NCBI GenBank assembly: GCA_903902345.1
Contig: CAIUUR010000389.1
Location: 1-33,229 of the forward strand
DNA length: 33,229 bases
Direction: 5' to 3'
Source: an uncultured Geobacteraceae bacterium
GTDB lineage: Bacteria; Desulfobacterota; Desulfuromonadia; Geobacterales; CAIOGM01
The notes under the pieces are model-generated. The model was not told the origin of the DNA and ran no database searches. It worked only from the letters and a program-made list of their open reading frames with translations. The position numbers were made by a program, and so were the translations under genes. Position 1 is the first letter of the stretch. Every line of letters starts with the position of its first letter. Below are positions 4,935 to 20,939 of the stretch, piece by piece.

Positions 4935-6083
4935 TTACCGGTTCTCCACCGCTGCTTTCATCCTTCTCAGCGCCTCCCGTAGGAGGGTTTTGCTGCAGCC
5001 GAAATTGAGCCGGACAAATCCCGGAGCGTCAAACTCCGCTCCGTCGGAGAGACCGACTCCGGCTCCCAGAAAGAACTTCGCCGGGTCGGTGACGCCGGCG
5101 CCACGGGTGTCGATCCAGGCCAGGTAGGTGGCTTCCACAGGGGTGGTGGAGAGGCCGGGAATAGCGCCGACCACCTCCGTCACCAGATCACGGTTCCCTC
5201 TCAGGTAGGCCAGCAGCGCCTGACGCCAGGACTCCCCACGGCGGTAGGCCGCTTCGGCGGCGGTGAAACCGAGAAGGTTCACGTGGGGGACGATCCTCCC
5301 GGCCGCGGCGGTGAAGCCCCTCCGGAGTTCGGGATCGCTGATCACGGCAAAGGAACAGCCGAGACCGGGGATGTTGTAGCTCTTGCTGGGGGCCAGCAGG
5401 GTAATGGTCCGGCGAGCGATCTCCGGGGAGAGGGTGGCGATGGGGATATGTCGTACCCCCTCATCCAGGATCAGGCCGGCGTGGATGTCGTCGGAGCCGA
5501 TGATCAGATCATGCCGTTCCGCCACAACCGCCAGTTGTCGCAACTCTTCCCGGGACCAGGCGCGTCCCACGGGGTTGTGGGGATTGCAGAGGAGGAGGAG
5601 GCGGCTGCGGGGGGTGATGGCTCGTTCCAGCGCCTCCAAATTGAATTCCCAGCGCCCTTCCGTCAGACGGAGGGGGACCTTCACCAGGCTCCGTTGGGAG
5701 AGGAGGGGGGCCGACATGAAGGGGGGATAGATGGGAGTAAAGGTTATGGCTTCGTCCCCCGGTTCCCCCACGCTTCGGCTGAGGACGTTCAGCCCGCAGA
5801 CCAGTCCCGGCAGCCAGACCAGCCATTCCGCCGGCGCCTCCCAGCCGAAATCCCTTTCCAGATGCTCCAGCACCGCCGCGATCACTCCCGGAGTGGGATG
5901 GGTGTAGCCGAAGACGCCATGCTCTATTCGCTGCTGCAGCGCGGAGATGACCGCGGGGGGTGAGCGGAAGTCCATGTCGGCCACCCAGAGGGGGATGACA
6001 TCCTCCCCGTAGCGGTCCCATTTCTCACTTCCCGTGCACCTCCGGTCAACAATGGTGTCAAAATCAAAAACGGTGTCCGGCAT
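4935..6083 (-). CDS. patB: PatB/MalY-type pyridoxal-phosphate C-S lyase (cystathionine beta-lyase-like aminotransferase)
   Basis: A 382-residue fold-type I PLP enzyme, matching the usual PatB/MalY length of about 390. Family signatures are FDTIVDRR and KWDRYGEDVIPLWVADMDF at the N-terminus, GVFGYTHP, CNPHNPVGRAWS, GSDDIHAGL, and the Schiff-base lysine in APSKSYNIPGL. RLNFGCSK near the C-terminus carries the carboxylate-binding Arg. These enzymes cleave cystathionine or cysteine conjugates to a thiol, pyruvate and ammonia; MalY also acts as a regulator in E. coli. The ATG at 6083 is preferred because GAGGAG (6094-6089) stands 5 nt before it; an in-frame GTG at 6089 overlaps that site. It starts 2 nt after the response regulator stop, so it is probably the last gene of the corrinoid/kinase operon. 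A link through homocysteine/methyl metabolism is speculative. Confidence 0.9.
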   Translation of the reverse strand: MPDTVFDFDTIVDRRCTGSEKWDRYGEDVIPLWVADMDFRSPPAVISALQQRIEHGVFGYTHPTPGVIAAVLEHLERDFGWEAPAEWLVWLPGLVCGLNVLSRSVGEPGDEAITFTPIYPPFMSAPLLSQRSLVKVPLRLTEGRWEFNLEALERAITPRSRLLLLCNPHNPVGRAWSREELRQLAVVAERHDLIIGSDDIHAGLILDEGVRHIPIATLSPEIARRTITLLAPSKSYNIPGLGCSFAVISDPELRRGFTAAAGRIVPHVNLLGFTAAEAAYRRGESWRQALLAYLRGNRDLVTEVVGAIPGLSTTPVEATYLAWIDTRGAGVTDPAKFFLGAGVGLSDGAEFDAPGFVRLNFGCSKTLLREALRRMKAAVENR

Positions 6084-6085
6084 TC

Positions 6086-7456
6086 TCACTCCTCGGTTTT
6101 TTCAATGGTGATAAAGACCCCGTGCTCCACCGGGTCCAGTTCATAAAAACGCCGGATAGCCATGCATTTGAATTTGTCCAGCTCGGTCCCCTTCTTCAGG
6201 AGGAGAACGCCGGACCCGCTGTAGATGTTCCGGCTCAGCATCATGCCGTTCTTCAATTCATCGGGTGATATCTCCTGTTCGGTAACCGCTTCGGCTGCTT
6301 TGCCGATCTCCTTCAGGTAGACTGCGGCGGTGATCCGTTCGAAAGCTTTTTGCAGATTCGGGTCCAATCTGCTCCCGCAGAGTTTTGCCGCCTGCTCCAG
6401 GGCAAGCTCCACGGGGAGAGCTGAGCGACCGGAGACGGCATTGTCGATATAGTCGGCAAAGGCGATGATGCGTGACCCCACGGGAATAGCGGCGGCGGCC
6501 AGCCTGTCGGGGAACCCCCTCCCGTCGAATCTTTCATGGTGGTGGCGGATGAGGATGCCGGCCGGCCGCAGGTATTCGATGACATCCAGCACCATCTGCC
6601 CCCTGACGGCGTGCATGCCGTATTCGCGGTAATCCTGGGGATTCAGCCGCTCGGGGGCTATCCGGAGAATTCGCTCGGAAACTCCCAGCTTGCCGATATC
6701 GTGGAGGAGCGAGGCGATCCTGATGGTCTCCCGCCCGTCGCCGGCGATTCCTTGCTCCTGGGCCGCAGCCTGTGACAACTCCGCCACGTTGCTGGCGTGC
6801 TGAAAGAGATCTTTTCCTCCCAGCTTCACCGTTCCCGCCAGGGCTACGATCATGGATTCGTAGCTCTCCTTCGTTCGGCGCAGGGTGAGCCCCAGTTCCT
6901 CATTTTTCTGCCGGAGGATGGTGGTCTGCTGCAGGACCCGCGCCTTGAGACTATTGTTCCACTCCCGTAGTTCTTCGTTCTGCTGGTGAACGATCTCGTT
7001 CAGCCGACGGTTTTCCACGGTAAGGGAATACTGTTGCATGGCGTCCCGGACCACCATGAGGAGCTCTTCGTCGTTCCATGGTTTTCCCAGATAACGGGAC
7101 AACCCCCCCTTGTTGATGGCGTCGATGGTGGAGTTGAGATCGGAGATGCCGGTCAGCAGTATCCGGACAGCATCGGGGGCTACGCCACGACAGGCTTCGA
7201 GAAATTCCGAGCCGAGCATTCCCGGCATCCGCTGATCCGAGATGATCACTCCCACATTCCGGTCACCGGCCAGGAGCATCAGTCCTTCGCCGCCGGAACG
7301 GGCCGTAATGACCTCGAAATCCTCATCCATAAACAGACGCCGGAGTGACTGGAGGATGTTTTCTTCATCATCAACACAAAGGAGTTGAAACGGCGCCGGA
7401 GCACCTTCGGTCGTCATCACGGTGTAACTCTCATCTAGCTGTTCCTTGATATTCAC
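6086..7456 (-). CDS. Response regulator with C-terminal HD-GYP-like phosphodiesterase domain
   Basis: A 456-residue protein. The receiver domain (about 22-140) has Asp29/Asp30, acceptor Asp74 in SDQRMPG and Lys125 in GKPW. A coiled coil (about 145-200) joins it to an HD domain with LLHDIGKLG (His252/Asp253), EYGMH and HHHERFDGRGFP (305-316). The GYP signature reads GFP and the HP motif is HA, while the presumed metal-binding His and Asp residues remain. HD-GYP proteins hydrolyse cyclic di-GMP; activity here is inferred. A C-terminal segment (ELKNGMMLSRNIYSGSG) is shared with the paralogue at 19635. The GTG start at 7456 overlaps the upstream TGA by 4 nt with no clear Shine-Dalgarno site, which suggests translational coupling to the kinase. 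An internal ATG (7417) is an alternative start. It is the likely phosphate acceptor for one or both adjacent kinases. Confidence 0.9.
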   Translation of the reverse strand: MNIKEQLDESYTVMTTEGAPAPFQLLCVDDEENILQSLRRLFMDEDFEVITARSGGEGLMLLAGDRNVGVIISDQRMPGMLGSEFLEACRGVAPDAVRILLTGISDLNSTIDAINKGGLSRYLGKPWNDEELLMVVRDAMQQYSLTVENRRLNEIVHQQNEELREWNNSLKARVLQQTTILRQKNEELGLTLRRTKESYESMIVALAGTVKLGGKDLFQHASNVAELSQAAAQEQGIAGDGRETIRIASLLHDIGKLGVSERILRIAPERLNPQDYREYGMHAVRGQMVLDVIEYLRPAGILIRHHHERFDGRGFPDRLAAAAIPVGSRIIAFADYIDNAVSGRSALPVELALEQAAKLCGSRLDPNLQKAFERITAAVYLKEIGKAAEAVTEQEISPDELKNGMMLSRNIYSGSGVLLLKKGTELDKFKCMAIRRFYELDPVEHGVFITIEKTEE

Positions 7457-9564
7457 GATTCTGTCGTATTTTCCGGCCTGCGGAGCGGCAGGGCGATGGT
7501 GAAGGTGGCCCCTGCACCCACGGAACTCCGTACCTGAATTGTTCCGCCATGTTTTATCACGATATCATGGGAGATGGATAGCCCCAACCCGGTTCCCCGC
7601 CCTGCTTCCTTGGTCGTATAGAACGGCTGGAAGATTCGGGACAGCTGGGATTCCGGGATGCCGCAACCGGTGTCACTGACGGCGATGTAGACCATGTCGG
7701 TGTCACTGCTGCTCCGTACGGTAATTTTCCCCTGACCGACCATGGCCTGGGCGGCGTTGACCAGCAGATTCATGAGCACCTGGCTGATCTGTTGCTGGTT
7801 ACAGGTGACCAGGGGGAGTTCCCCCAGTTCCAGCGCCAGAGTAGCCACATATTTGATTTCATTGGTTACGATGGTGATCACGCTCCGAATGCACTGATTC
7901 AGGTCGGCCGGCTCCATTCGGCCGAACTCATCGCTCCTCGCAAAGCGCTTCAAGTCGCTGATGATTGCCTTGATCCGTCCGCTCCCGTCGGCGGATTCCC
8001 TGATGATCTGGGGGAGTTCGTTCCTGATCCGGTCGATCTTCAGCTCTCCCCTTCTGGTGGTAATTCTCGCCGCTCCCTGTGGCGTGGAGCTCTCCCGGAG
8101 CTCCTGTTCCAGGGCCGATATGTAGGAGTCGAGACGATCCCAGTATTTTCCCAGGGTCGTGATGTTGCTGGTGATGAAACCCATGGGGTTGTTAATCTCG
8201 TGGGCGATTCCCGAGGCGAGGAGCCCGATGGAAGCCATCTTGTCCTGCTGGAGCATTTGACGCCGGATATCCATGAGCTCTCGTTCCGTGGCGACACGCG
8301 CCGTAATATCTTCCACGAGAACGATGAAGTACTTGACGCCGCCATCCTGGTTTCGCAGGCATTTTACGGTGTTGACCGCATGCACCGTGGCTCCGTCCTT
8401 TTTCAGGTAGCGCTTCTGACACACCGTGTCGTTGATTTCACCGGAAACAGTCCGGTCAAACCGTATGAAGTTGGTGGGAAGGTCATCGGGATGAGTCACT
8501 TCAGGCCAGGTCAGAGTGAGCAACTCTTCCCGTGAGTATCCCAACATTCGGCAGAGGGCGGAGTTTACCGAAGTAAAATGCTTGTCCAGATCGGTGGTCG
8601 CCATCCCCACGGTGGCGTTCTCGAAAAATGCGCGGAAATGCTCTTCACTCCGATGGAGGGCCTGCTGGGCGTTTCGGCGTTCGGTGAAATCCATGGTCTG
8701 GCTGGCAAGAAATGTCCTGTTCCCTCGTTTAAGGGGGAACTTGATGGAGTGAAAATGCCTACCCTTGAACTCGTATTCGAATTCGGAAGGTCCTCCCGCG
8801 GCCAGCACATCAAGATCACCACGATGAATCGTTCCGGCAAATTCCGGAGGAAACAGCTCCTCTGTCCGTCGCCCGATAATCAGCTCAAGGGGTCTGCCCA
8901 GCAACTTCTCGAAGTTCCTGCTGGCCTCAATGACTCTGAGATTCTCATCCTTGATATAGGTGTAAACCGGGCTCTGTTCCACGAAGAGCCGGAACAGCTC
9001 CTTACTCTCCGCCAGGGCTTGTTCAGTACGTTTTTGCGCGACCATACTCCAGAGCACATCGGCCAGAAAGGAGAGCTCCCGCACGTCTTCGTCACCGTAC
9101 GGTTTCGACTTGTTACCCACTCCCAGGAGCGCCACCACCAGATCAGTGCGCAGTACCGGGACGACCAGTTCCCGAAGTATAGCTGCCTGCTGCTCCCGCT
9201 CTCCCTTCCTAGGGCGTATCGTTGCGTAATGGTTGACCATGACCGGTTTTTGCTGATGGACGGAGTCAACCCAGATGCCGCTTTCGCCGATGGGATAAGG
9301 TGTCCCTTTTTCCAGGGTCGTGCAAAAATCCTTCAGTGTTCCCGTGGACCATGCCTGGAGCGACAGGGTGGTCTGATCGGGTTCCACAAAGTGGTAGAAA
9401 CCCATGGGACTTCCGTTGAAGGCGCAGATCTCATCCAGGGAGTACTGCAGCAATTCGTCCAGGCCATGCCCCAGGGCATATTCCATCAGACGGATACGCA
9501 CCATGAGCAGCTCATCGTTTTGTCGTCGCCGGCCGGTACTGTTGGTTCTGTTTACCGATTTCAT
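7453..9564 (-). CDS. GAF-PAS-PAS sensor histidine kinase
   Basis: 703 residues with no membrane segment, so probably cytoplasmic. A GAF domain (about 30-180, with GFYHF, IGESGIWVDSV and ELVVPVL) is followed by PAS1 (about 188-300), PAS2 (about 305-425), a short coiled coil, then an NtrB/ZraS-type kinase core. His455 lies in SGIAHEINNPMGFI, the N-box is NLLVNAAQAM, and the G boxes are DTGCGIP and GRGTGLGLS. It lacks a receiver domain, so it must phosphorylate a separate partner; the response regulator whose GTG overlaps its stop by 4 nt is the obvious candidate. Its ATG overlaps the upstream kinase's TGA by 4 nt and follows GGAGGCAGGAG. The kinase core is a paralogue of the upstream kinase's core (shared HEIN-PxGFI-SN and LGKY). 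Confidence 0.93.
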   Translation of the reverse strand: MKSVNRTNSTGRRRQNDELLMVRIRLMEYALGHGLDELLQYSLDEICAFNGSPMGFYHFVEPDQTTLSLQAWSTGTLKDFCTTLEKGTPYPIGESGIWVDSVHQQKPVMVNHYATIRPRKGEREQQAAILRELVVPVLRTDLVVALLGVGNKSKPYGDEDVRELSFLADVLWSMVAQKRTEQALAESKELFRLFVEQSPVYTYIKDENLRVIEASRNFEKLLGRPLELIIGRRTEELFPPEFAGTIHRGDLDVLAAGGPSEFEYEFKGRHFHSIKFPLKRGNRTFLASQTMDFTERRNAQQALHRSEEHFRAFFENATVGMATTDLDKHFTSVNSALCRMLGYSREELLTLTWPEVTHPDDLPTNFIRFDRTVSGEINDTVCQKRYLKKDGATVHAVNTVKCLRNQDGGVKYFIVLVEDITARVATERELMDIRRQMLQQDKMASIGLLASGIAHEINNPMGFITSNITTLGKYWDRLDSYISALEQELRESSTPQGAARITTRRGELKIDRIRNELPQIIRESADGSGRIKAIISDLKRFARSDEFGRMEPADLNQCIRSVITIVTNEIKYVATLALELGELPLVTCNQQQISQVLMNLLVNAAQAMVGQGKITVRSSSDTDMVYIAVSDTGCGIPESQLSRIFQPFYTTKEAGRGTGLGLSISHDIVIKHGGTIQVRSSVGAGATFTIALPLRRPENTTES

Positions 9565-11507
9565 CTCCTGCCTCCCGATCTCCGCAGTTCATCCGAAATT
9601 CCGCCGACGGGGAGTTTCACGGTAAAGGTCGATCCTGCTCCTTCCCTGCTGGTAACCAAAATCTCTCCCCGGTGTTTTTTGACGATGTCATAGGCGAGGG
9701 ACAGACCGAGACCGGTACCCTTTCCCACCTCTCTGGTGGTGAAAAAAGGGTCGAAGATACGGGGGAGGTTTGTTTCAGGAATGCCGCATCCGGTATCGGC
9801 GATCTGCGCGCAGATGGTTTCGTCCTCCAGCAGGGTGGTGACGGTGATCTCTCCCCCGTCCCCCAGGGCATGGATCGCGTTTGTCAGCAGGTTCATGAAC
9901 AACTGGTTCAATTGCTGAGGATAGCAGAGGGTAGGGGGGATGACGCCGAAGTTGCGCCGGATCTTCATGGAGGGAGTCAGGCAGTTCCTGACCATGATAA
10001 TGGTTTGATCCAGGCAGTTGTTGATGTCGGCATTGGTGGGGGTGTCGCCGTCCGCACCGGCGAACTGTATCAGTTCCCGGATAATCTTATGGACCCGTTC
10101 GGCCCCCGTTCTGGATTCGGAGATCAACTGTCCGCTGTCGGCGAGGATATGTCGGATCTTCAACCGGGTGGAACATTCCTCTACCCGTTCCCGGAGTTGC
10201 GGGATGCCGCATTCCACGAGACAATCGGTCTGAACTTCAATGAATTCCCTGATCCTACCCAGATATTTACCCAGGGTTCCCAGATTGCTGCTGATGAATC
10301 CCAGCGGACTGTTAATCTCATGGGCCACGCCGCCGGCCAGTTGCCCGATGGAGGTCATTTTTTCCTGCTGGAACGCCAGCGCCTTCACATCCCTCAGCTG
10401 GGAATAGGCATCCTGAAGTTCATCGCGCTGAGTACTGATTTTTTTGGTCAGTACGTTCAATTCCTGAAAAATTCGTGCATTTTTAAGGATGATGCCGGAG
10501 AGTTCGCCGGAGGTCAACGCCAGGCTCAGGTACTGTTCCCGATACTTGGGGAGGGTGAGGCCGTCAATGATGATGACTCCCAGTTCATCACCCTTATGAC
10601 CCACCTTGAACAGGAATCTTCCTTCCATTTCATGGGGGAGGGTGTAGTCGGTTTTCAGGGTCATCGCCTGGGCAATAAGTTCGTCTCTGTCGCTCCCCTT
10701 GAATTCTCCCTGAATCGTAACCGTGTCCGGCGCGCCGCCGTTGAGTCGGACGAAGGCTACCCCGTTGGCGGCGAAGAGCGTCTGAAACATGATCAGAATC
10801 CTGCCGACAATCTCTTCTTCCTGGTGGGATTGGGCGATGAGATCCAGCAGGTCAAAGGCCATGACGTAGTCGGCGCAGGTCCGTTGGAGAAGCTCACGGG
10901 AATGAACGCAGGAGTCACCGCGACAGAGCGCCGCGGCGTTCTCGATCCGGAGCCGGAGCAGCTCCAATCCTACGGGAACGACGGTGAAGGGGCGCTGCAC
11001 GAAGGTGGCGAATTGGGCAAGGTCGTTCAGGGAATCACCCCCCACTCCCGTGTCGAGAAGGAGGAGGGAGTTGATGGCTTCGGCGAAAAATTCACCGGCC
11101 AATTCAGCATCCTGGTGGAACCCCAGGACATGAAGATGTTCCCGCCAGTTCCGCAACCAACCGGAGGTGACGATGTAGGCGCCTTCCTGAAGGTAGCGGT
11201 TGACGGCATAAGCGGGGGCCACCAGATGAAAACAAGAGTCCAGACGAATGAACCGACAGGCCGTGGGGATTTCCGACGAACCTTCCAGTTGTGACAGGCA
11301 GCATCCTCCCAGGGTGATGACGACATCGTTAGTGCCGGTAGTCGCATCCAATGTCGACCGAAGTTCCGCTGGTGACAACGGTGGCCGGCCACAGCGGGGG
11401 GGGAACGTGGCGAATTCCAGCCCGGGAAAATCTCCCGACTCCCTCAGGGAGTTGATCTCTTCGCCGTAGAGTTCGCAGACCAGAACGGTGAGTCCTCCTC
11501 CGTTCAT
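9561..11507 (-). CDS. Sensor histidine kinase with DUF1638-like N-terminal domain and a GAF-like domain
   Basis: 648 residues, no evident membrane helix. The N-terminal ~200 residues are not PAS or GAF. They show LGGCC (66-70), RLDSCFHL (88-95) and [13 protein letters not shown] (109-121), which from memory resemble DUF1638, a family often found near corrinoid methyltransferase genes; this assignment is tentative. A GAF-like region (about 220-345) is followed by a coiled coil and a kinase core: His396 in [15 protein letters not shown]-box [17 protein letters not shown] and GKGTGLGLS. There is no receiver domain. The ATG overlaps the upstream methyltransferase homologue's stop by 4 nt (ATGA) with little Shine-Dalgarno sequence, implying translational coupling. 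The context suggests that the N-terminal domain senses the state of the corrinoid/methyltransferase pair or its substrate. That is inference. Confidence 0.88.
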
Positions 11508-12553
11508 GGCGCGGTGTCCGACGCCAGCGGATAGTTGCCGAACGTATGGACGGCGTCGGATATGGCCATGAGCACCTCATCGGGGACTTGCCAGGGGATC
11601 TCTCCATGATTGTCCGCCAGGATGTAGCCGCCGCCGCGCCCACCCTTGGCGATCGCCTCCTGAACCTTGATCCGGGCCTCCTGGGGGCTCCAGCGCCGCA
11701 TCTCGATACCGTTCAAGTTGCCGATGATGCTCAATCGACCGGCTGCCGCCGCTTTGACCTCCGCCAAATCTTCCTGTGAGCTGACACCCAGGGCTGCTGT
11801 TCCTGTCCGGGCCAGAAGCTCCATGATCCCGAGGCAGCGCCCCGATGCCAGATGGGTCGCGGTGGGTCCCTTGATCCGCGCCAGGGTCTCTATGGCCACC
11901 TGAAACCCGGTGGTCTCATAGAGTTCCCGGGGGATAATGGTAGGTGACGCCACCGGATCGAAATAACAGATGGCGCTTGCTCCGGCCTCAAGCTGGGCAT
12001 TGGCCCACTGTACGGCGAATTCCTGATTGACGGTCATGAGTCGTCGAAAGAGATCCGGTCGTTCGTTGAGCAGGTCCAGATAGGTTGCAAACCCCAGTTG
12101 CATGACGGGAAGAGAAAAGGGGGAGATCACTACCCCCAAGATGGGGACCTGGCCGCCGGAGTTCTGTTTCAGCAGGCGAAGAGTCGCCAGAGTACGCTGC
12201 AGGCCGGCGGAATCTTCCAGACGGGGGGGGACAAGATGCAGGATCTCATCCATTCTCCCCAGCGGGGGCTGTCCGGAGTTGGGAGGGCCATCGTCGTAAT
12301 AGATGACCTCACCACCCCATGCCTCGATCTCCTGTGGCGCGAAGTGAAAGCCCGAGAGGCAGTCGTGCCGGTATTTCGCCCGGAGGCGGAGTTGCCCGGT
12401 TGCTACATATTCCGCCCGGGAAAAATACTCCCTGATCCCCATTCCCAGCTCCTTGGCGCCATGGAGGGTTGCCAGCAGGAAAAAAGGGACCCGATCCGGT
12501 TCCTGATGGCTCAGCGAGGTGAGTACGCGTTGCATGGAGTTATATGTTTTCAC
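11504..12553 (-). CDS. Uroporphyrinogen decarboxylase/MtaA-family methyltransferase homologue
   Basis: 349 residues in the URO-D superfamily. The N-terminus SMQRVLTSLSHQEPDRVPFF is the typical family opening, followed by DPVASPTIIP (about 199-208), the GNLNG strand and a closing DNHGEIPWQVPDEV. MtaA/MtbA-type members transfer methyl groups between corrinoid proteins and thiols at a zinc site usually formed by His-x-Cys and a distal Cys. Here the first motif reads His234-Leu-Ala236 and the distal site His316, so zinc binding may be altered or lost. The GTG at 12553 is chosen because GGGAGG stands 6 nt upstream and family homology starts just after it; it overlaps the corrinoid gene by 14 nt. 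True heme-pathway HemE is unlikely, because the context is a corrinoid protein and kinases. Substrate unknown. Confidence 0.85.
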   Translation of the reverse strand: MKTYNSMQRVLTSLSHQEPDRVPFFLLATLHGAKELGMGIREYFSRAEYVATGQLRLRAKYRHDCLSGFHFAPQEIEAWGGEVIYYDDGPPNSGQPPLGRMDEILHLVPPRLEDSAGLQRTLATLRLLKQNSGGQVPILGVVISPFSLPVMQLGFATYLDLLNERPDLFRRLMTVNQEFAVQWANAQLEAGASAICYFDPVASPTIIPRELYETTGFQVAIETLARIKGPTATHLASGRCLGIMELLARTGTAALGVSSQEDLAEVKAAAAGRLSIIGNLNGIEMRRWSPQEARIKVQEAIAKGGRGGGYILADNHGEIPWQVPDEVLMAISDAVHTFGNYPLASDTAP

Positions 12554-13187
12554 CGTGCACCTCCCGGCTGAGACGTTGGACGATGGCGATAGCCCCCGAA
12601 GCCGTAGGGCTGGTGGCGTCGGCGCCGACTTCCTGCCAGAGCTGTTCATCGAACCTGAACGGCGCTCCTCCCACCACCAGCTTGACCTTGAGTCCCAGGG
12701 TATCCAGACGTCGACGAAGCTCTTTCACCCGGAGGGCTGAGGAAAGCATTAACGTGGAGACGAGCAGGATCCGAATTTTTTCCGATTGAACCCTGATAAC
12801 CAGACTCTCCAGGTGCTGCTGACCGAAATCGGTGATCTTGTAGCCACCGGCCCTGAGCACCGAACAGAGTAACCGTTTCCCCAGCAGGTGGGAATCTTCC
12901 AGAACGGCCACAGCTATGTTGGGAGTTTTTTTCAGCTCAGGTCCATCGGAGGGGAGGAGCTCATTCAGCAGCGATTCGCAGATCCGGCCGCTGACATAGA
13001 TCTGGGACAGGGCAACCTCGCCTCGCTCCCACTTGGCGCCGATCAGGTCCAGCACCGGCATGAAGTACTCTTCGGCGAATTCGGTGGGGGTGAGTCCCGA
13101 ATCTTTGTAAATTCTCCGGGTGGCGACCTTGTTGAGGCTCAGAAGCGCCGTTTCCAGTTCATGGTGGAGTCGTTGGGCGTTACTCAT
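12540..13187 (-). CDS. Corrinoid (vitamin B12)-binding protein, methyltransferase-associated type
   Basis: 215 residues. An N-terminal helical cap (about 1-90, B12-binding-2/MtaC-like, with EEYFMPVLDLIGAKWERGEVALSQIYVSGR) is followed by a Rossmann B12-binding domain. The base-off/His-on signature D-x-H-x-x-G is present as DSHLLG, with the later LVSTLML and VVGGAPF loops that complete the classical motif set. The His would replace the lower axial ligand of the cobalamin. The start is ATG 13187, with AGGAG about 6 nt upstream (GGAGCGCCATG). It is the first gene of the minus-strand operon and overlaps the methyltransferase homologue, its presumed partner. An alternative role is a B12-based sensor, as in MerR/CarH-like regulators, but no DNA-binding domain is present. 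Confidence 0.9.
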   Translation of the reverse strand: MSNAQRLHHELETALLSLNKVATRRIYKDSGLTPTEFAEEYFMPVLDLIGAKWERGEVALSQIYVSGRICESLLNELLPSDGPELKKTPNIAVAVLEDSHLLGKRLLCSVLRAGGYKITDFGQQHLESLVIRVQSEKIRILLVSTLMLSSALRVKELRRRLDTLGLKVKLVVGGAPFRFDEQLWQEVGADATSPTASGAIAIVQRLSREVHGENI

Positions 13188-13335: not shown

Positions 13336-13363
13336 TCGTCGTTTCGGTATACCGAAACGACGA
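13336..13363. promoter_or_regulatory. Perfect 28-bp palindrome (operator or parS-like site) upstream of the ParB-like gene
   Basis: The half-site TCGTCGTTTCGGTA (13336-13349) is followed by its exact reverse complement to 13363, with no spacer and no mismatch. It ends 16 nt before the GTG start and just upstream of the Shine-Dalgarno AGGAG. It carries GTTTC and GAAAC arms like canonical parS, but with 8 nt rather than 4 nt between them. Autoregulation by the ParB-like protein is the simplest reading. Confidence 0.8.
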
Positions 13364-14331: not shown

Positions 14332-14763
14332 ATGGCGGTGGAATGGGGTGAGTATCTCTCCGTGGGAGTTGCACGGATAGATGATCAGCATAAGGAGATT
14401 TTCCGACGAATCAATGCCCTCATGGATGCTATCAATGAGGGAGATGGCGCAACCCAGGTAATCGAGGCGATCAAATTTCTGGAGAATTATACGGTAACCC
14501 ATTTCGCCGACGAAGAAGGACTGATGGCAGAAACCTGTTATTCGGTTCTTGGGCCCCACCGGAAGGAGCATGAGAAGTTTTGTATGGATGTGCAGTTGCT
14601 GAAACAGCGGATAACCACGGAAGGGACCACCAAGATGAATATTCTCAAGACCAGCCAGGCGCTCATCAGCTGGCTCGTCCAGCATATTTTAGCCACCGAC
14701 AAGGCTCTGGCCGCTCATTTGAGCTCTACCTGGAACAACAAAGCTGAAGAGGAGACGACATGA
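14332..14763 (+). CDS. Bacteriohemerythrin
   Basis: 143 residues with the full non-heme di-iron ligand set: His20 (DDQH), His57/Glu61 (HFADEE), His76/His80 (HRKEH) and His118/Asp123 (HILATD). It is a four-helix bundle that reversibly binds O2; in motile anaerobes such proteins deliver, scavenge or sense oxygen. Single-domain and cytoplasmic, with no signal peptide. The start ATG follows AAGGGGAAGAG. The stop overlaps the start of the next gene by 4 nt, so the two are translationally coupled. A second, variant hemerythrin lies at the far end of the window. Confidence 0.95.
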
Positions 14764-15789: not shown

Positions 15790-15829
15790 TGTGGGTGATA
15801 ACTCTGTTTTATTGCCACAGGAGATCATC

Positions 15830-18800
15830 ATGAAAATGCCCGCCATTGTCAATTTCTATCTCAATTTCTCCGTCAAACTCCGTTTGACCGTCCTCTGTGT
15901 CTGCTACACTCTCGGCGTACTTGCCGTGGAGTTCAGCGGCAGGTTCGGGCAGAACATCCACTATGGCGCCCTTGTTTTTACCGTACTCTTCGGGATTCTC
16001 TTCAGTTGGCTGAATATCTGGTCCATCTGCCAGGCGATCCGGCGGGCCATGGAACACCTTGAGACGATGGCCAGGGGGGATCTTTCCCAGAATATAGAAG
16101 TTTTACGCCACAATGAGATCAGCAGGATGCTTTTCAGCATGAAGACGCTCCAGGAATCGTTTCAGAAGCTCTCCACCGATACGGGAATGCTGATTACGGC
16201 TGCGGTGAACGGAAATCTCTCCACCAGGGCCGACGCAGGGAGACACCACGGAGATTTTGAGAAGATCGTGGCCGGTATTAATGAAATTATGGATACTGTC
16301 ATCGGCCCGTTAAACGTGGCCGCCGATGCTCTCTACAACTTCGGTGACGGCATCGTTCCCAAAGAAATCACCGAAGAGTATCGGGGCGATTACGCGAGGA
16401 TCAAGGCCGGTCTCAGCAGTGTCATCAGCGCCGTCAGTCTGAGGGGGCAGGATCTGGAACTCCTCAATAACGCCGCCCTGCAGGGGAATCTTTCCCTGCG
16501 CGCCGATACGTCCAAATATTCCGGCTACAACAGCAAAGCGCTTACCATCGTCAACGAAATTCTGGATCGACTGACCATTCCACTGGGGGTCGCCGCCACC
16601 TATGTGGACCGGATCTCCAAGGGAGATATCCCGGAGAAGATTACCGAAACCTACAACGGTGACTTCAACACCATCAAGAACAACCTCAATACCTGTATCG
16701 ACGCCATCAACTATCTCATTGCCGACACTGACATGCTGGCCAAAAACGCCGTCCACGGAAAACTGGCGACCCGGGCGGATTTGACCCGGCACCGAGGGGA
16801 CTTTCGCAAGATCGTCTCCGGAATTAACGATACCCTGGACGCCGTCATCGACCCCCTGAACGTGGCCGCCGAGTATGTAAACCGGATCTCCAAGGGAGAT
16901 ATCCCCCCCAAGATCACCGACAGATACCAGGGGGACTTCAACGAGATCAAACTCAATCTCAACAACTGTATCGACAATATCAACGCCCTGGTGGTGGATG
17001 TGGATATGTTGGCCGGTTCCGCCCGGGAGGGAACTCTGGCGAAAAGAGCCGATGTGGCGACTCACCACGGGGATTTCCGAAAGATCGTGGCCGGTTTCAA
17101 TGAGACCCTGGATGCGGTCATCGGTCCCTTGAATGTGGCCGCCACCGCACTGCACAAATTCGGGGAAGGTCTCTCGCCGGAAAGAGTGACCGAGATCTAC
17201 CATGGCGATTATGAAAAGATCAAGATCGGTGTCAACAATGTCATCGAAAATGTGGAAATGCGGGGTTATGACCTGGAATTGCTCAGAAACGCCGCCCTGT
17301 CGGGTAATCTGACCCTGCGGGTGGATGCTTCGAAATACATCGGTTTCAACAGCAGAATGATCGGTACTATCAATGATATTCTGGATAATCTGGTGACACC
17401 GCTGATGATGACCTCCAGTTATATGGCCCGTATCGCCAAGGGAGACATTCCCTCTCGAATCACCGATAGCTATCATGGCGACTTTGATGATATCAAAAAC
17501 AACCTGAATACCTGTGTCGACGCCGTCAACGCCCTCATTGCCGATGCCGGGATGCTGGCCCAGGCTGCACGGGAAGGAAAGCTGAACCTCCGGGCCGATA
17601 CCCGCAGACATCAGGGCGATTTCCGGACCATCATCCAGGGCGTCAACGATACTCTCGACGAAGTTATCGGTCCACTCTCCATGGCGGCGGGTTATGTAGA
17701 CCGGATCAGCAAGGGAGACATTCCGAACAAGATCACCGACCAGTACCATGGTGATTTCAATGTTCTCAAAAACAATCTGAATACCTGTGTGGATGCGGTG
17801 AACAGCCTCATTACCGACGTCTACCTCCAGGCTCAGGCCGCTCTGGAGGGGAGATTGATGATCCGTGCTCATGCCGGTCGGCACCAGGGGGATTTCCGGA
17901 AAATCGTTACCGGTGTCAATACCACCATCGACGCTCTGGTGGGAATCATCGACGCCCTCCCGGCTCCGGTGATGATCGTCGATCGCTCCTTCACCATCAC
18001 CTACATGAACCGGAGCGGCGCACAAGTCGGGGGGAAGAGTCCGGAACAGGTCATCGGCGGTAAGTGTTATGATCATTTCAGGACATCGGATTGCAATACG
18101 GAAAAATGCGCCTGCCGCCGGGCCATGGAGGACGGCCGGATCTCCACCAGCGAGACCGACGCTCAACCCGGGTCGAACGTTCTTGAAATATCCTACACAG
18201 CCAGCCCCCTGCGGGATGGGGAAGGAAAGGTTATCGGCGCCTTCGAGATGGTCACGGACCTGACGACCATCAAACGTCACGCCAGGGCCACCGACAAGAT
18301 CCTGGCATATCAGGCGACCGAAACCGGGAAACTGGCCGACTGTCTGGGAAAACTTGCTCAGGGAGATACCGGTTTCTCGTTACGGGCCGAATCGGGAGAT
18401 CCGGACACCGCCGCCATACGCAACAACTATGAAACCATTTATCATGAGGTTACCAACCTGACCGGTGCGTTGCAAAACATCTCTGCCATTGCCGTTGAGA
18501 TTGCCGGCGGCAACCTTATGGTGGAGCTCAAGGAGCGCTCCCCGGACGACGAACTGACGAAATCCCTCATCGCCATGGTCGGACAACTCATCAGTGTCGT
18601 GAGCGAGGTAAAATCAGCAGCCGACAACGTAGCCGCCGGTTCCCAGGAGATGAGTTCCGGGGCGGAGAACCTTTCCCAGGGGGCTTCGGCCCAGGCCGGC
18701 GCCGCCGAGGAGGCTTCCTCCTCCATGGAGGAGATGACCGCCAACATCAGGCATAGCGCCGACAACGCCCAGCAGACCGAGAAGATTGCCGTCAAGTCCG

Positions 18801-19492
18801 CCGATGACGCCAAGGCCGGGGGGGCGGCCGTGGCCGAGACCGTCGCCGCCATGCGGGAGATTGCCGGGAAGATCACCGTCGTGGAAGAGATCTCCCGGCA
18901 GACCAACATGCTGGCCTTAAACGCCGCCATCGAGGCGGCCCGGGCCGGAGAGCATGGCAAGGGTTTCGCCGTGGTCGCCTCCGAAGTACGCAAGCTGGCG
19001 GAACGGAGCCAGCAGGCGGCCCAGGAGATATCCCAGCTTTCCGCCTCCAGTGTGGAGGTGGCGGAACGGGCCGGGGCGATGCTGACCCGGATGCTTCCGG
19101 ACATTCAGAAAACTTCCGACCTGGTGCAGGAGATTCACGCCGCCAGCAGGGAGCAGGATTCCGGGGCAGGGCAGATCAACAAGGCGATTCAGCAGTTGGA
19201 CCAGGTGATCCAGCAGAACGCCTCCGCCGCCGAGGAGATGGCCTCCACCGCCGAGCAGCTCTCCTCCCAGGCCGAGCAACTCCAGGGCGCCGTGGCCTTC
19301 TTCAAAATAGACAGTGTCACCGCCAAACCCGCACCTCCGGCCAGAGTCCGTCCAACCCGAATCAGTGCCAAGGCGCCTCCCCAAAAAGCTCCTACCTACG
19401 GTGTAGCCAAGAGAACGTCCAGCACTGTGGGGGGGCATGACCTGCATATGGCGTTGCCCGATGACCTGGATAACCACTTCGAGAAGTTCTGA
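15830..19492 (+). CDS. Methyl-accepting chemotaxis protein with poly-HAMP array, Cys-rich PAS and C-terminal pentapeptide
   Basis: 1220 residues. Two membrane helices (about 17-36 and 45-67) are joined by only about 10 residues, so there is no periplasmic sensor. A canonical HAMP follows (68-115). Then come six tandem units of exactly 91 residues (117-662) and half a seventh (663-705), each unit looking like two HAMP-type modules. A PAS domain (about 706-815) carries Cys746, Cys755, Cys760 and Cys762. A further HAMP-like stretch (825-925) leads to the MCP signalling domain, with hairpin tip [23 protein letters not shown] (split by position 1030). A Pro/Ala-rich linker ends in HFEKF (1216-1220), fitting the CheR/CheB-binding pentapeptide pattern. 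The ATG at 15830 follows CAGGAG; an upstream in-frame GTG lacks such a site. The signal is probably cytoplasmic, perhaps redox. Confidence 0.95.
16178..17953 (+). repeat. Coding tandem array of 273-bp units (91-residue poly-HAMP) with an 819-bp superrepeat
   Basis: Units start at 16178, 16451, 16724, 16997, 17270 and 17543, with a partial seventh at 17816. Every unit is 273 bp with no indel. Units 1 and 4 share the F-G-x-G and GDY variant, units 2 and 5 share DLELL-NAAL-GNL, and units 3 and 6 share the RISKGDIP type. The array is therefore two copies of a three-unit block (819 bp). Confidence 0.88.
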
Positions 19493-19634
19493 TCTCCGGG
19501 ATGTAGAGCTATTCTGTGTACTTTGTTCTCCGTTTGGTGTAGATTCTGAAAAGTTTGCCCATGGCCCCATGGCAGCGATGTGGCGCCCGGACAACCGTTA
19601 CTGCCATACTTTTCGGTATCACAAAGGAGATAGC

Positions 19635-20939
19635 ATGACGGATGAATCGCTCCACGTACTCTTCGTGGATGACGAAATCAATATTCTGAAGACCATGACC
19701 CGGCTCTTTCGGGAAGAGCCCTTCAAGGTTCTGACTGCGAGTTCGGGGGTGGAAGGTCTGGAGATCCTCCGTGCCAGTTCCAATGTGGGATTGATCGTCA
19801 GCGATCAGCGCATGCCGGGAATGACCGGCACGGCTTTTCTCCAGGCGGCCTCCGAGATCTTTCCTGATACCCCCCGGATGATCCTCACCGGATACTCGGA
19901 TGTGAATGCTGCCATTGACGCCATCAATCAGGGGGGCGCCTCGCGCTTTCTCATGAAGCCGTGGAATGAGAATGAACTGCGCCTTGCGGTGCGTGACGGG
20001 CTGCAACGGTACCAGCTTATCCAGGAGAACAAACGTCTCAATGAGGTCATCCGCTTGCAAAAAGAAGAGATGGCAGAATGGAACGTCAATCTCAAGGCCC
20101 GGGTGCTCCAGCAGACGACGACGATCAGGAAACAGCTGGAAGAGACACGCCAGCAGAGTGACCGGAGCCAGAAAAAAAGCGACGCCATGGTTCTCCTGCT
20201 GGCCGATCTGCTGGATCGGGGGCACCACCAGATCAGCAAACACTCCCGCAATGTGGCCGCCCTGGCGGGATCCATCGCCGCTACCCTGCACCTCCCGCTG
20301 TATCAGGCCGAGGAAATCAGGAATGCGGCGCTACTTCATGATATTGGCCTCATCGGCATGTCCGAACGGGTGCTCACCAAAAGCAGGGAACTTCTCAGTG
20401 GCGATGATCTCCTGGAGTATCGAACTCATCCGGTGAAAGGACAGGAGACCATCGACACCATCGAAGAGCTGCAGGGGATCGGGAGGCTCATCCGTCATCA
20501 TCACGAAGAGTTTGCGGGGGGCGGTTTTCCCGGAGGGCTTTCCGGAGAAGGGATCTCGTTGGGGGGGCGGATTCTCTTCCTGGCAAATTACATCGACAAC
20601 CAGTACACCCTGCTCACCGGGAAAGATGCCAAATATCAGATAACCAGAAAGGTGGCGGCGGGGATGGGGAGACTATTTGATCCGGCCCTGGCGCAGGCTG
20701 CCAATCAGGCGGTGATGGAGGTCCTGGCGGATCCTCCCACCGCTCAGCAGAGTCACACCGAACAGGAACTGCCCCTCCGTAATCTGGAAGTGGGGATGAT
20801 CTTGACGCGGGATATCTACAGTAACCCGGGGTTATTGGTCCTGGAGCGGGGAACCCGCCTCACCCCCCAGTCGCTGGAGGCGATCCGCCTGCATCAATTG
20901 AGCATTCCGCTGAATACTAAGGCGTATATCCGGAAATAG
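19635..20939 (+). CDS. Response regulator with degenerate HD-GYP-like domain, paralogue of the 6086-7456 product
   Basis: 434 residues. The receiver (5-125) has Asp12/Asp13, acceptor Asp57 in SDQRMPG and Lys108 in MKPW. A coiled coil (about 130-185; NVNLKARVLQQTTTIRKQ is nearly shared with the paralogue) leads to an HD domain: LLHDIGLIG (His235/Asp236), EYRTHP and HHHEEFAGGGFP (288-299). The usual Lys after the HD pair is Leu, the Asp of DGxGYP is Ala, and GYP is GFP. The main His/Asp metal ligands remain, so hydrolysis of c-di-GMP is possible but uncertain. The ATG follows AAAGGAGATAGC. It lies 142 nt after the chemoreceptor and may read out its state or that of an unlinked kinase. Its stop is 4 nt from the convergent livF stop. 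Confidence 0.9.
   Translation: MTDESLHVLFVDDEINILKTMTRLFREEPFKVLTASSGVEGLEILRASSNVGLIVSDQRMPGMTGTAFLQAASEIFPDTPRMILTGYSDVNAAIDAINQGGASRFLMKPWNENELRLAVRDGLQRYQLIQENKRLNEVIRLQKEEMAEWNVNLKARVLQQTTTIRKQLEETRQQSDRSQKKSDAMVLLLADLLDRGHHQISKHSRNVAALAGSIAATLHLPLYQAEEIRNAALLHDIGLIGMSERVLTKSRELLSGDDLLEYRTHPVKGQETIDTIEELQGIGRLIRHHHEEFAGGGFPGGLSGEGISLGGRILFLANYIDNQYTLLTGKDAKYQITRKVAAGMGRLFDPALAQAANQAVMEVLADPPTAQQSHTEQELPLRNLEVGMILTRDIYSNPGLLVLERGTRLTPQSLEAIRLHQLSIPLNTKAYIRK

What the first reader, a model, noticed from the sequence alone, without database searches (positions are those of the whole stretch)
4935..13187. Corrinoid protein, methyltransferase homologue, two histidine kinases and an HD-type regulator fused into one operon
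Seen: six consecutive minus-strand genes with a 14-nt overlap, three 4-nt overlaps and a 2-nt gap. Known: B12-binding proteins with DxHxxG pair with URO-D/MtaA-like methyltransferases; kinases without receivers need a separate regulator. Inference: the corrinoid/methyltransferase pair acts as, or supplies, a sensory input to the kinases, which drive the REC/HD-GYP-like protein, giving methyl- or cobalamin-dependent control of cyclic di-GMP or another output. Coupling a methyl-transfer module to two kinases in translational overlap is unusual.
Basis: partly seen in the sequence, partly recalled or inferred. Interest (0 to 1): 0.85.

Follow-up and report, generated by a model that had tools for sequence, protein, structure and literature searches.

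The report
Corrinoid methyltransferase cassette feeding signalling kinases
A vitamin-B12 protein, a methyl-transfer enzyme and an uncharacterised cysteine-rich domain form a cassette, wired directly to sensor kinases or c-di-GMP enzymes in many distantly related bacteria, which suggests an undescribed way for microbes to sense methylated compounds or corrinoid state.

Summary
In detail: six tightly packed minus-strand genes encode a corrinoid protein (B12), a URO-D methyltransferase, HK1, HK2, a REC-HD regulator and PatB. DUF1638 genes elsewhere are needed for corrinoid enzymes (PMC5764234).

B12–UROD–DUF1638 is a widespread, horizontally mixed cassette. In the window's order, 78 of 80 such cassettes have a kinase or GGDEF domain fused to DUF1638 (22) or in a following gene (56). 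Among 80 relatives from about ten phyla, B12 directly precedes UROD in 76, and the next gene is mostly DUF1638–GAF fused to a histidine kinase, hybrid kinase or diguanylate cyclase. Output type changed at least 12 times on the UROD tree, as expected for a sensory input module.

The corrinoid motif DxHxxG is kept. The URO-D lacks the MtaA zinc-thiol ligands but has its own conserved H…DNHGEIP site. DUF1638 carries conserved Cys plus Cys/His. HK2 and the regulator are conserved only within the genus; PatB is peripheral.

Best reading: a corrinoid methyl-transfer sensor for two-component and c-di-GMP signalling. Methyl donor and phosphotransfer are inferred, not shown. I found no description in the open-access library.

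The parts
12540..13187 (-). Corrinoid protein (B12-binding_2 helical cap + B12-binding domain), 215 aa, DxHxxG motif D98-x-H100-x-L102-G103
   Evidence: Pfam/NCBIfam; DxHxxG invariant in 20 aligned relatives and present in 149 of 151 cassette B12 proteins, the two without it being truncated
11504..12553 (-). URO-D family corrinoid methyltransferase homologue, 349 aa, GTG start; MtaA zinc ligands HxC...C replaced, conserved ATHLASGR and DNHGEIPW
   Evidence: Pfam URO-D 1.5e-46; alignment; zinc-site census
9561..11507 (-). HK1: DUF1638-GAF-HisKA-HATPase sensor kinase, 648 aa
   Evidence: Pfam DUF1638 aa 47-185, HATPase; AF2 model of aa 1-355; intact HEINSPL H-box and GTGLGL motifs read in the sequence
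10923..11507 (-). DUF1638 domain of HK1 (aa 1-195): alpha/beta fold, near-invariant C11, E17, C39, C92 and mostly kept C70
   Evidence: AF2 pLDDT 94.8; residue counts; no PDB sequence relative or fold match at E<=1e-3
10452..10895 (-). Linker helix (aa 182-225 in the model) into the GAF domain of HK1 (about aa 205-352)
   Evidence: Profile match; Foldseek GAF matches, TM to target about 0.7; helix 182-225 in the model
9588..10382 (-). HisKA/HATPase kinase core of HK1 (about aa 376-640)
7453..9564 (-). HK2: GAF-PAS-PAS-HisKA-HATPase sensor kinase, 703 aa; conserved beside the cassette in the window's genus (4 of 4), with varying sensor domains
6086..7456 (-). REC-HD response regulator, NosR-family c-di-GMP phosphodiesterase (433 bits, cut-off 400); REC Asp in SDQRMPG; HD motif HDIGK and HHHERFDGRGFP (GFP instead of GYP)
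   Evidence: conserved in all four genomes of the genus, weaker relative (43%) beside the cassette of G084
4935..6083 (-). PatB-family C-S lyase (aminotransferase fold); peripheral passenger or accessory gene
   Evidence: TIGR04350 over its cut-off; beside the cassette in the window, G002 and, in another position, G031 only

Best explanation
The first three genes are a dedicated sensory input module. The URO-D enzyme moves a methyl group between a small methylated compound (unknown) and the cobalt of the corrinoid protein. The methyl or redox state of that corrinoid is read by the DUF1638 domain, through docking and probably through a metal held by its Cys/His residues. The signal passes through the linker helix and GAF domain to the HK1 kinase, and on to the REC-HD regulator, which HK2 may also address, to change c-di-GMP. 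Shown here: gene order, domain make-up, kept catalytic motifs, output swapping, wide conservation. Inferred: methyl transfer, docking on DUF1638, metal binding, phosphotransfer, c-di-GMP output and the direction of control.
For: In the window's order, 78 of 80 B12-UROD-DUF1638 cassettes have a kinase or GGDEF domain fused to DUF1638 (22) or in a following gene within about 2.6 kb (56); of the other two, one is DUF1638-GAF with no recognised output. In 80 relatives from genome contigs, B12 directly precedes UROD in 76. The next gene is DUF1638-GAF-kinase in 31, -hybrid kinase in 10, -GGDEF in 9, DUF1638-GAF with another or incomplete output in 11, and GAF or GAF-kinase without DUF1638 in 10. 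All ten DUF1638-GGDEF proteins keep GGEEF (two of the ten are the same gene fetched twice). Output type needs at least 12 changes on the UROD tree. Core parts co-vary (Mantel r 0.57-0.72, 0 of 999 permutations as high), the kinase somewhat less (0.50-0.56). The corrinoid motif DxHxxG is kept. No other family recurs in 4 or more loci except response regulators and one unidentified 6-locus cluster that looks like an ABC ATPase. RACo/DUF4445 activase is not found in three cassette carriers (G000, G003, G084), so the module seems not to need it. DUF1638 is tied to corrinoid enzymes genetically (PMC5764234; PMC12478193).
Against: No activity, ligand or phosphotransfer has been measured. The methyl donor is unknown. 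DUF1638 is missing in some cassettes that keep GAF and output (Desulfobacter relatives, magnetotactic Nitrospirota), so DUF1638 cannot be indispensable for coupling. HK2, with its own GAF/PAS inputs, may be the main kinase for the regulator. Conserved co-location cannot by itself tell input from regulated target.
Confidence: 0.6

Rival explanations
1. Metabolic unit under local control: B12-UROD-DUF1638 is a working methyltransferase complex and the kinase senses something else through GAF, controlling expression or physiology of that pathway.
For: Same protein families as catabolic corrinoid systems; DUF1638 is required for a metabolic enzyme in Phaeobacter; active-site residues of the URO-D are strongly conserved.
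Against: No recurrent transporter, second methyltransferase or activase beside the cassettes; RACo not found in three carriers; frequent covalent fusion of DUF1638 to outputs and swaps to diguanylate cyclases.
Confidence: 0.2
2. Corrinoid redox or supply sensor: DUF1638 reads Co(II)/Co(I) or cobamide loading of the B12 protein rather than methylation; the URO-D only sets the resting state.
For: DUF1638 is linked to B12 reactivation in Alphaproteobacteria; conserved Cys and Cys/His positions suggest a redox-active metal; the cassette occurs without RACo, so Co(II) could accumulate as a signal.
Against: Does not explain why a methyltransferase homologue with a strongly conserved, distinct active site is present in every cassette.
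Confidence: 0.15
3. B12-dependent photoreceptor: the corrinoid protein senses light, as CarH and photocobilins do, and drives kinase or GGDEF output in trans.
For: Same cap-plus-Rossmann architecture as CarH; light-responsive B12 domains are found with GAF and GGDEF outputs (PMC11796333).
Against: The CarH EH signature (tested as W-x9-EH) is absent in 151 of 151 cassette B12 proteins; a dedicated methyltransferase homologue accompanies them.
Confidence: 0.03

Closest known systems
MtaA/MtbA/CmuA URO-D methyltransferases with MtaC/MtbC corrinoid proteins
   Same: Same folds and the same two-protein pairing; corrinoid DxHxxG motif kept.
   Different: Zinc-thiol ligands HxC...C absent in all of about 150 cassette enzymes, present in 15 relatives outside cassettes in the set; no recurrent activase, second methyltransferase or substrate gene beside them; coupled to signalling output.
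Type 1 mlp gene clusters (Kountz and Balskus, PMC10418091)
   Same: Soluble CoM-methyltransferase homologues clustered in anaerobes, PatB mentioned as a neighbour in some; possible counterparts with H-C-C URO-D occur in this order (L109, L110, L116).
   Different: Those are read as methyl-sulfur/selenium metabolism; the paper text has no mention of histidine kinases or DUF1638.
Split methionine synthase with DUF1638 and RamA-like protein in Phaeobacter (PMC5764234)
   Same: DUF1638 works with a corrinoid protein.
   Different: Metabolic, DUF1638 free-standing, RACo-type activase also required; no kinase.
MsmS/RdmS methyltransferase-associated sensor kinases of Methanosarcina (PMC11784639)
   Same: Kinases genetically associated with methyltransferase genes.
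   Different: RdmS and MsmS lack the H-box; RdmS was described as thiol-based redox sensing; no corrinoid or URO-D input module or DUF1638 fusion is described in the passages read.
CarH and photocobilin B12 photoreceptors (PMC11796333)
   Same: B12-binding domain used for signalling, with GAF/GGDEF outputs.
   Different: EH signature absent here; sensing inferred to be chemical, with a methyltransferase partner.

Membership tests
MtaC/MtbC-type corrinoid protein | B12-binding_2 cap + B12-binding domain with DxHxxG cobalt-ligand motif | tested here: met
MtaC/MtbC-type corrinoid protein | Above curated NCBIfam cut-offs (TIGR02370, MtbC, MtaC, MtgC) | tested here: not met
   best 73 bits vs 215 (TIGR02370) and 45 vs 350 (MtbC)
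MtaA zinc-dependent thiol methyltransferase | URO-D fold | tested here: met
   PF01208 1.5e-46
MtaA zinc-dependent thiol methyltransferase | Zinc ligands H-x-C ... C | tested here: not met
   window THLASGR / ADNHGEIP; none of about 150 cassette enzymes has C,C
DUF1638 (PF07796) | Pfam gathering score | tested here: met
   41.6 bits, cut-off 27
Two-component histidine kinase (HK1, HK2) | Phospho-acceptor His and N/G-box ATPase motifs | tested here: met
   HATPase over cut-off, HisKA under cut-off, HEINSPL/HEINNPM and GTGLGL read in the sequence
Two-component histidine kinase (HK1, HK2) | Phosphotransfer to the REC-HD protein | not testable with these tools
   biochemistry needed
HD-GYP / NosR-family c-di-GMP phosphodiesterase | REC + HD domain, family cut-off | tested here: met
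   NF053512 433 vs 400 bits
HD-GYP / NosR-family c-di-GMP phosphodiesterase | Canonical HD and GYP motifs | tested here: inconclusive
   HDIGK kept, GYP is GFP
CarH-type B12 photoreceptor | GxxW...EH adenosylcobalamin signature | tested here: not met
   W-x9-EH absent in 151 of 151; signature from PMC11796333
RamA/RACo-dependent corrinoid enzyme system | RACo_C_ter (DUF4445) activase in the genome | tested here: not met
   not found in G000, G003, G084; these are draft genomes, 98-99% complete

The most novel reading that the evidence does not exclude
A previously undescribed class of signal transduction: a corrinoid methyl-transfer complex (corrinoid protein + URO-D methyltransferase + DUF1638) serves as a dedicated chemosensor of methyl donors, spread horizontally through about ten phyla and plugged into histidine kinases, hybrid kinases or diguanylate cyclases.
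Probability: 0.5. Interest if true: 0.92.

Novelty: new variant of a known kind. Interest (0 to 1): 0.82.

Why it matters
Corrinoid methyltransferases are known as metabolic enzymes, while known B12-based sensors are photoreceptors or riboswitches (own knowledge). A widespread cassette that joins a corrinoid protein, a methyltransferase and DUF1638 to kinases or diguanylate cyclases would give anaerobes and other bacteria a way to sense methylated compounds or corrinoid state and adjust c-di-GMP or gene expression. It also gives DUF1638, a domain of unknown function, a testable role and candidate metal ligands, and offers one-protein test cases (DUF1638-GAF-GGDEF) in which the idea can be assayed directly.

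Tried and rejected
MtaA membership of the URO-D: rejected, zinc ligands absent. CarH-type photoreceptor: rejected, EH signature absent. RNA families and tRNAs: none in the window. Sigma-54 promoter upstream of the corrinoid gene: suspected by eye in a sister genome, but 0 of 161 upstream regions matched the consensus, dropped. Internal promoters or terminators: no more matches than shuffles. DUF1638 fold by PDB search: no match at E<=1e-3, and no sequence relative in the PDB. PatB as a core part: rejected, beside the cassette in only three genomes. Recurrent metabolic neighbours that would name the methyl donor: none found. Literature: searches for DUF1638, and for corrinoid with histidine kinase, diguanylate cyclase or sensor, found no description; the library is open-access only. 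A regex check of kinase motifs over all relatives was too strict to be informative.
Full report
Observation. The window holds six co-oriented minus-strand genes at 13187-4935 with the stated overlaps. Pfam and NCBIfam give B12-binding_2 + B12-binding; URO-D; a histidine kinase (HK1); a GAF-PAS-PAS histidine kinase (HK2); a REC-HD protein that passes the cut-off of the NosR-family c-di-GMP phosphodiesterases; and a PatB C-S lyase. A consensus scan finds no more terminator- or promoter-like sites than shuffled sequence would.

The N-terminus of HK1 is DUF1638 (PF07796, 41.6 bits, cut-off 27). It is the only DUF1638 found in this genome. A GAF domain follows (profile; Foldseek matches to solved GAF domains). 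AlphaFold2 gives confident models of DUF1638-GAF (pLDDT 91.5) and of DUF1638 alone (94.8). DUF1638 is an alpha/beta domain without a sequence relative or a fold match at E<=1e-3 in the PDB. Outside this context DUF1638 has been tied to corrinoid enzymes: a Phaeobacter DUF1638 gene is needed for a split methionine synthase (PMC5764234), and a Ruegeria DUF1638 protein rises on N-osmolytes (PMC12478193). HK1 is therefore a fusion of a corrinoid-linked domain with a kinase.

Conservation inside the order. The window's URO-D has a tight set of relatives (53% identity or more) in about 20 genomes of the order and a wider set at 24-36% identity. In the window's genus, B12-UROD-HK1-HK2-regulator recurs in all three other genomes; PatB follows in one of them. 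In the wider set DUF1638 is a separate gene of about 195 aa between UROD and a kinase. Counting unique sites, 78 of 80 B12-UROD-DUF1638 cassettes have a kinase or GGDEF domain fused (22) or in a following gene within about 2.6 kb (56). Of the two exceptions, one is DUF1638-GAF without a recognised output and one lies on a short contig. Five counted URO-D/DUF1638 neighbours without an adjacent B12 gene have no kinase and may be of the metabolic mlp type. One locus of the order (L037) has DUF1638-GAF-GGDEF. Kinase fusions of DUF1638 without the GAF signature also occur in three wider-set loci (L128, L134, L150), possibly a separate fusion event.

Conservation across phyla. A scan of genome contigs found 350 relatives of the window URO-D and kept the best 80, at 55-87% identity, in records named as Desulfobacterota, Chloroflexota, Nitrospirota, Alpha-, Beta- and Gammaproteobacteria, Bacteroidota, Verrucomicrobiota, Bacillota, Spirochaetota, SAR324, Riflebacteria and one archaeal bin. 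Many are metagenome bins, so single labels may be wrong. B12 lies directly upstream of UROD in 76 of 80. The next gene is DUF1638-GAF-kinase (31), DUF1638-GAF-hybrid kinase (10), DUF1638-GAF-GGDEF (9), DUF1638-GAF with another or truncated output (11), GAF or GAF-kinase without DUF1638 (10), DUF1638 alone (3) or none found (6). One of the 'other' outputs is a HisKA_2 kinase (L217), one a split HisKA (L206). On the UROD tree, phylum labels need 23 changes (least possible 9) and output type needs 12; the tree was a quick one with many weak branches. Distances of UROD, B12, DUF1638 and GAF correlate (r 0.57-0.72), the kinase somewhat less (0.50-0.56). In the 80 loci, 17 have a GGDEF or HD gene in or beside the cassette. 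No other gene family recurs in 4 or more loci apart from response regulators and an unidentified 6-locus cluster whose sequence reads like an ABC ATPase. Gene calls were six-frame ORFs, not a trained gene finder.

Active-site evidence. The corrinoid ligand motif DxHxxG is present in 149 of 151 cassette B12 proteins, and the other two are truncated; the CarH signature, tested as W-x9-EH, is absent in all 151 (signature described in PMC11796333). All 15 H-x-C...C zinc sites in the set belong to URO-D genes outside cassettes. Cassette enzymes never have the two cysteines, and the window's clade has a conserved H-(S/A)...DNHGEIP arrangement instead. The enzymes look functional but not as thiol methyltransferases. 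In DUF1638, C11, E17, C39 and C92 are kept in 58-59 of 60 fused forms and C70 in 52 of 60. The stand-alone forms have C10, H38, C67 and C88. A Cys/His exchange at about one of four positions fits a metal site, though no coordinates were available to measure distances.

Activase. RACo_C_ter (DUF4445) occurs in 111 of 141 genomes of the order but was not found in G000, G003 or G084, all cassette carriers reported 98-99% complete. The cassette seems not to need that activase.

Mechanism. Most likely the cassette is a sensory input: methyl transfer by the URO-D sets the state of the corrinoid protein, DUF1638 reads it, and the GAF/helix part passes it to the kinase or cyclase. In the window the partner is probably the REC-HD regulator, shared with HK2, acting on c-di-GMP. 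Only the anatomy and its conservation are shown; every chemical step is inferred. The main rival is a metabolic enzyme under local control; it explains less well the repeated fusion and swapping of outputs and the lack of metabolic neighbours. A second rival is a corrinoid redox or supply sensor, which the present data cannot separate from methyl sensing.

Novelty. Two-component and c-di-GMP systems and corrinoid methyltransferases are known kinds. Their coupling through DUF1638 as a dedicated, output-swappable cassette was not found in the open-access library. The nearest described ideas are methyltransferase-associated kinases of Methanosarcina (PMC11784639) and B12 photoreceptors (PMC11796333).

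Noticed in passing
13336-13363: 28-bp perfect palindrome TCGTCGTTTCGGTATACCGAAACGACGA between the corrinoid gene and a divergent ParB_N/HTH_ParB gene; halves GTTTC/GAAAC recall parS. Unique in the window and not seen at the relatives; perhaps an operator of the ParB-like gene.
   Followed up: partly
19437-20939: ORF with 45% identity to the REC-HD regulator over 416 residues, a second copy of this regulator type in the same window.
   Followed up: no
15791-19492: 1233-aa protein with many repeated segments of about 90 residues, a PAS-like stretch and a methyl-accepting chemotaxis-like signalling end (seen in the translation).
   Followed up: no
14332-14763: Small hemerythrin-domain protein beside the ParB-like gene; no close relative found at the relatives' cassettes.
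   Followed up: no
L174, L175, L176, L180, L181, L207, L224, L227, L235, L244: Cassettes that keep B12, UROD and the GAF domain but have lost or lack DUF1638; in several the GAF protein ends in a Cys-rich IPICxxCKKIRDDxGYW segment instead of a kinase.
   Followed up: partly
L197, L216, L222: Desulfobulbaceae/Electrothrix loci with UROD upstream of B12, two of them (L197, L216) with a second UROD gene downstream of B12.
   Followed up: no
L036/L220: Geomonas sp. Red32 carries two cassettes about 7 kb apart, one with separate DUF1638 and a hybrid kinase, one DUF1638-GAF with no recognised output.
   Followed up: no
L128:4393-6405, L134:2529-4466, L150:6010-8046: DUF1638-kinase fusions without the GAF signature in the wider clade, possibly an independent fusion.
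   Followed up: no
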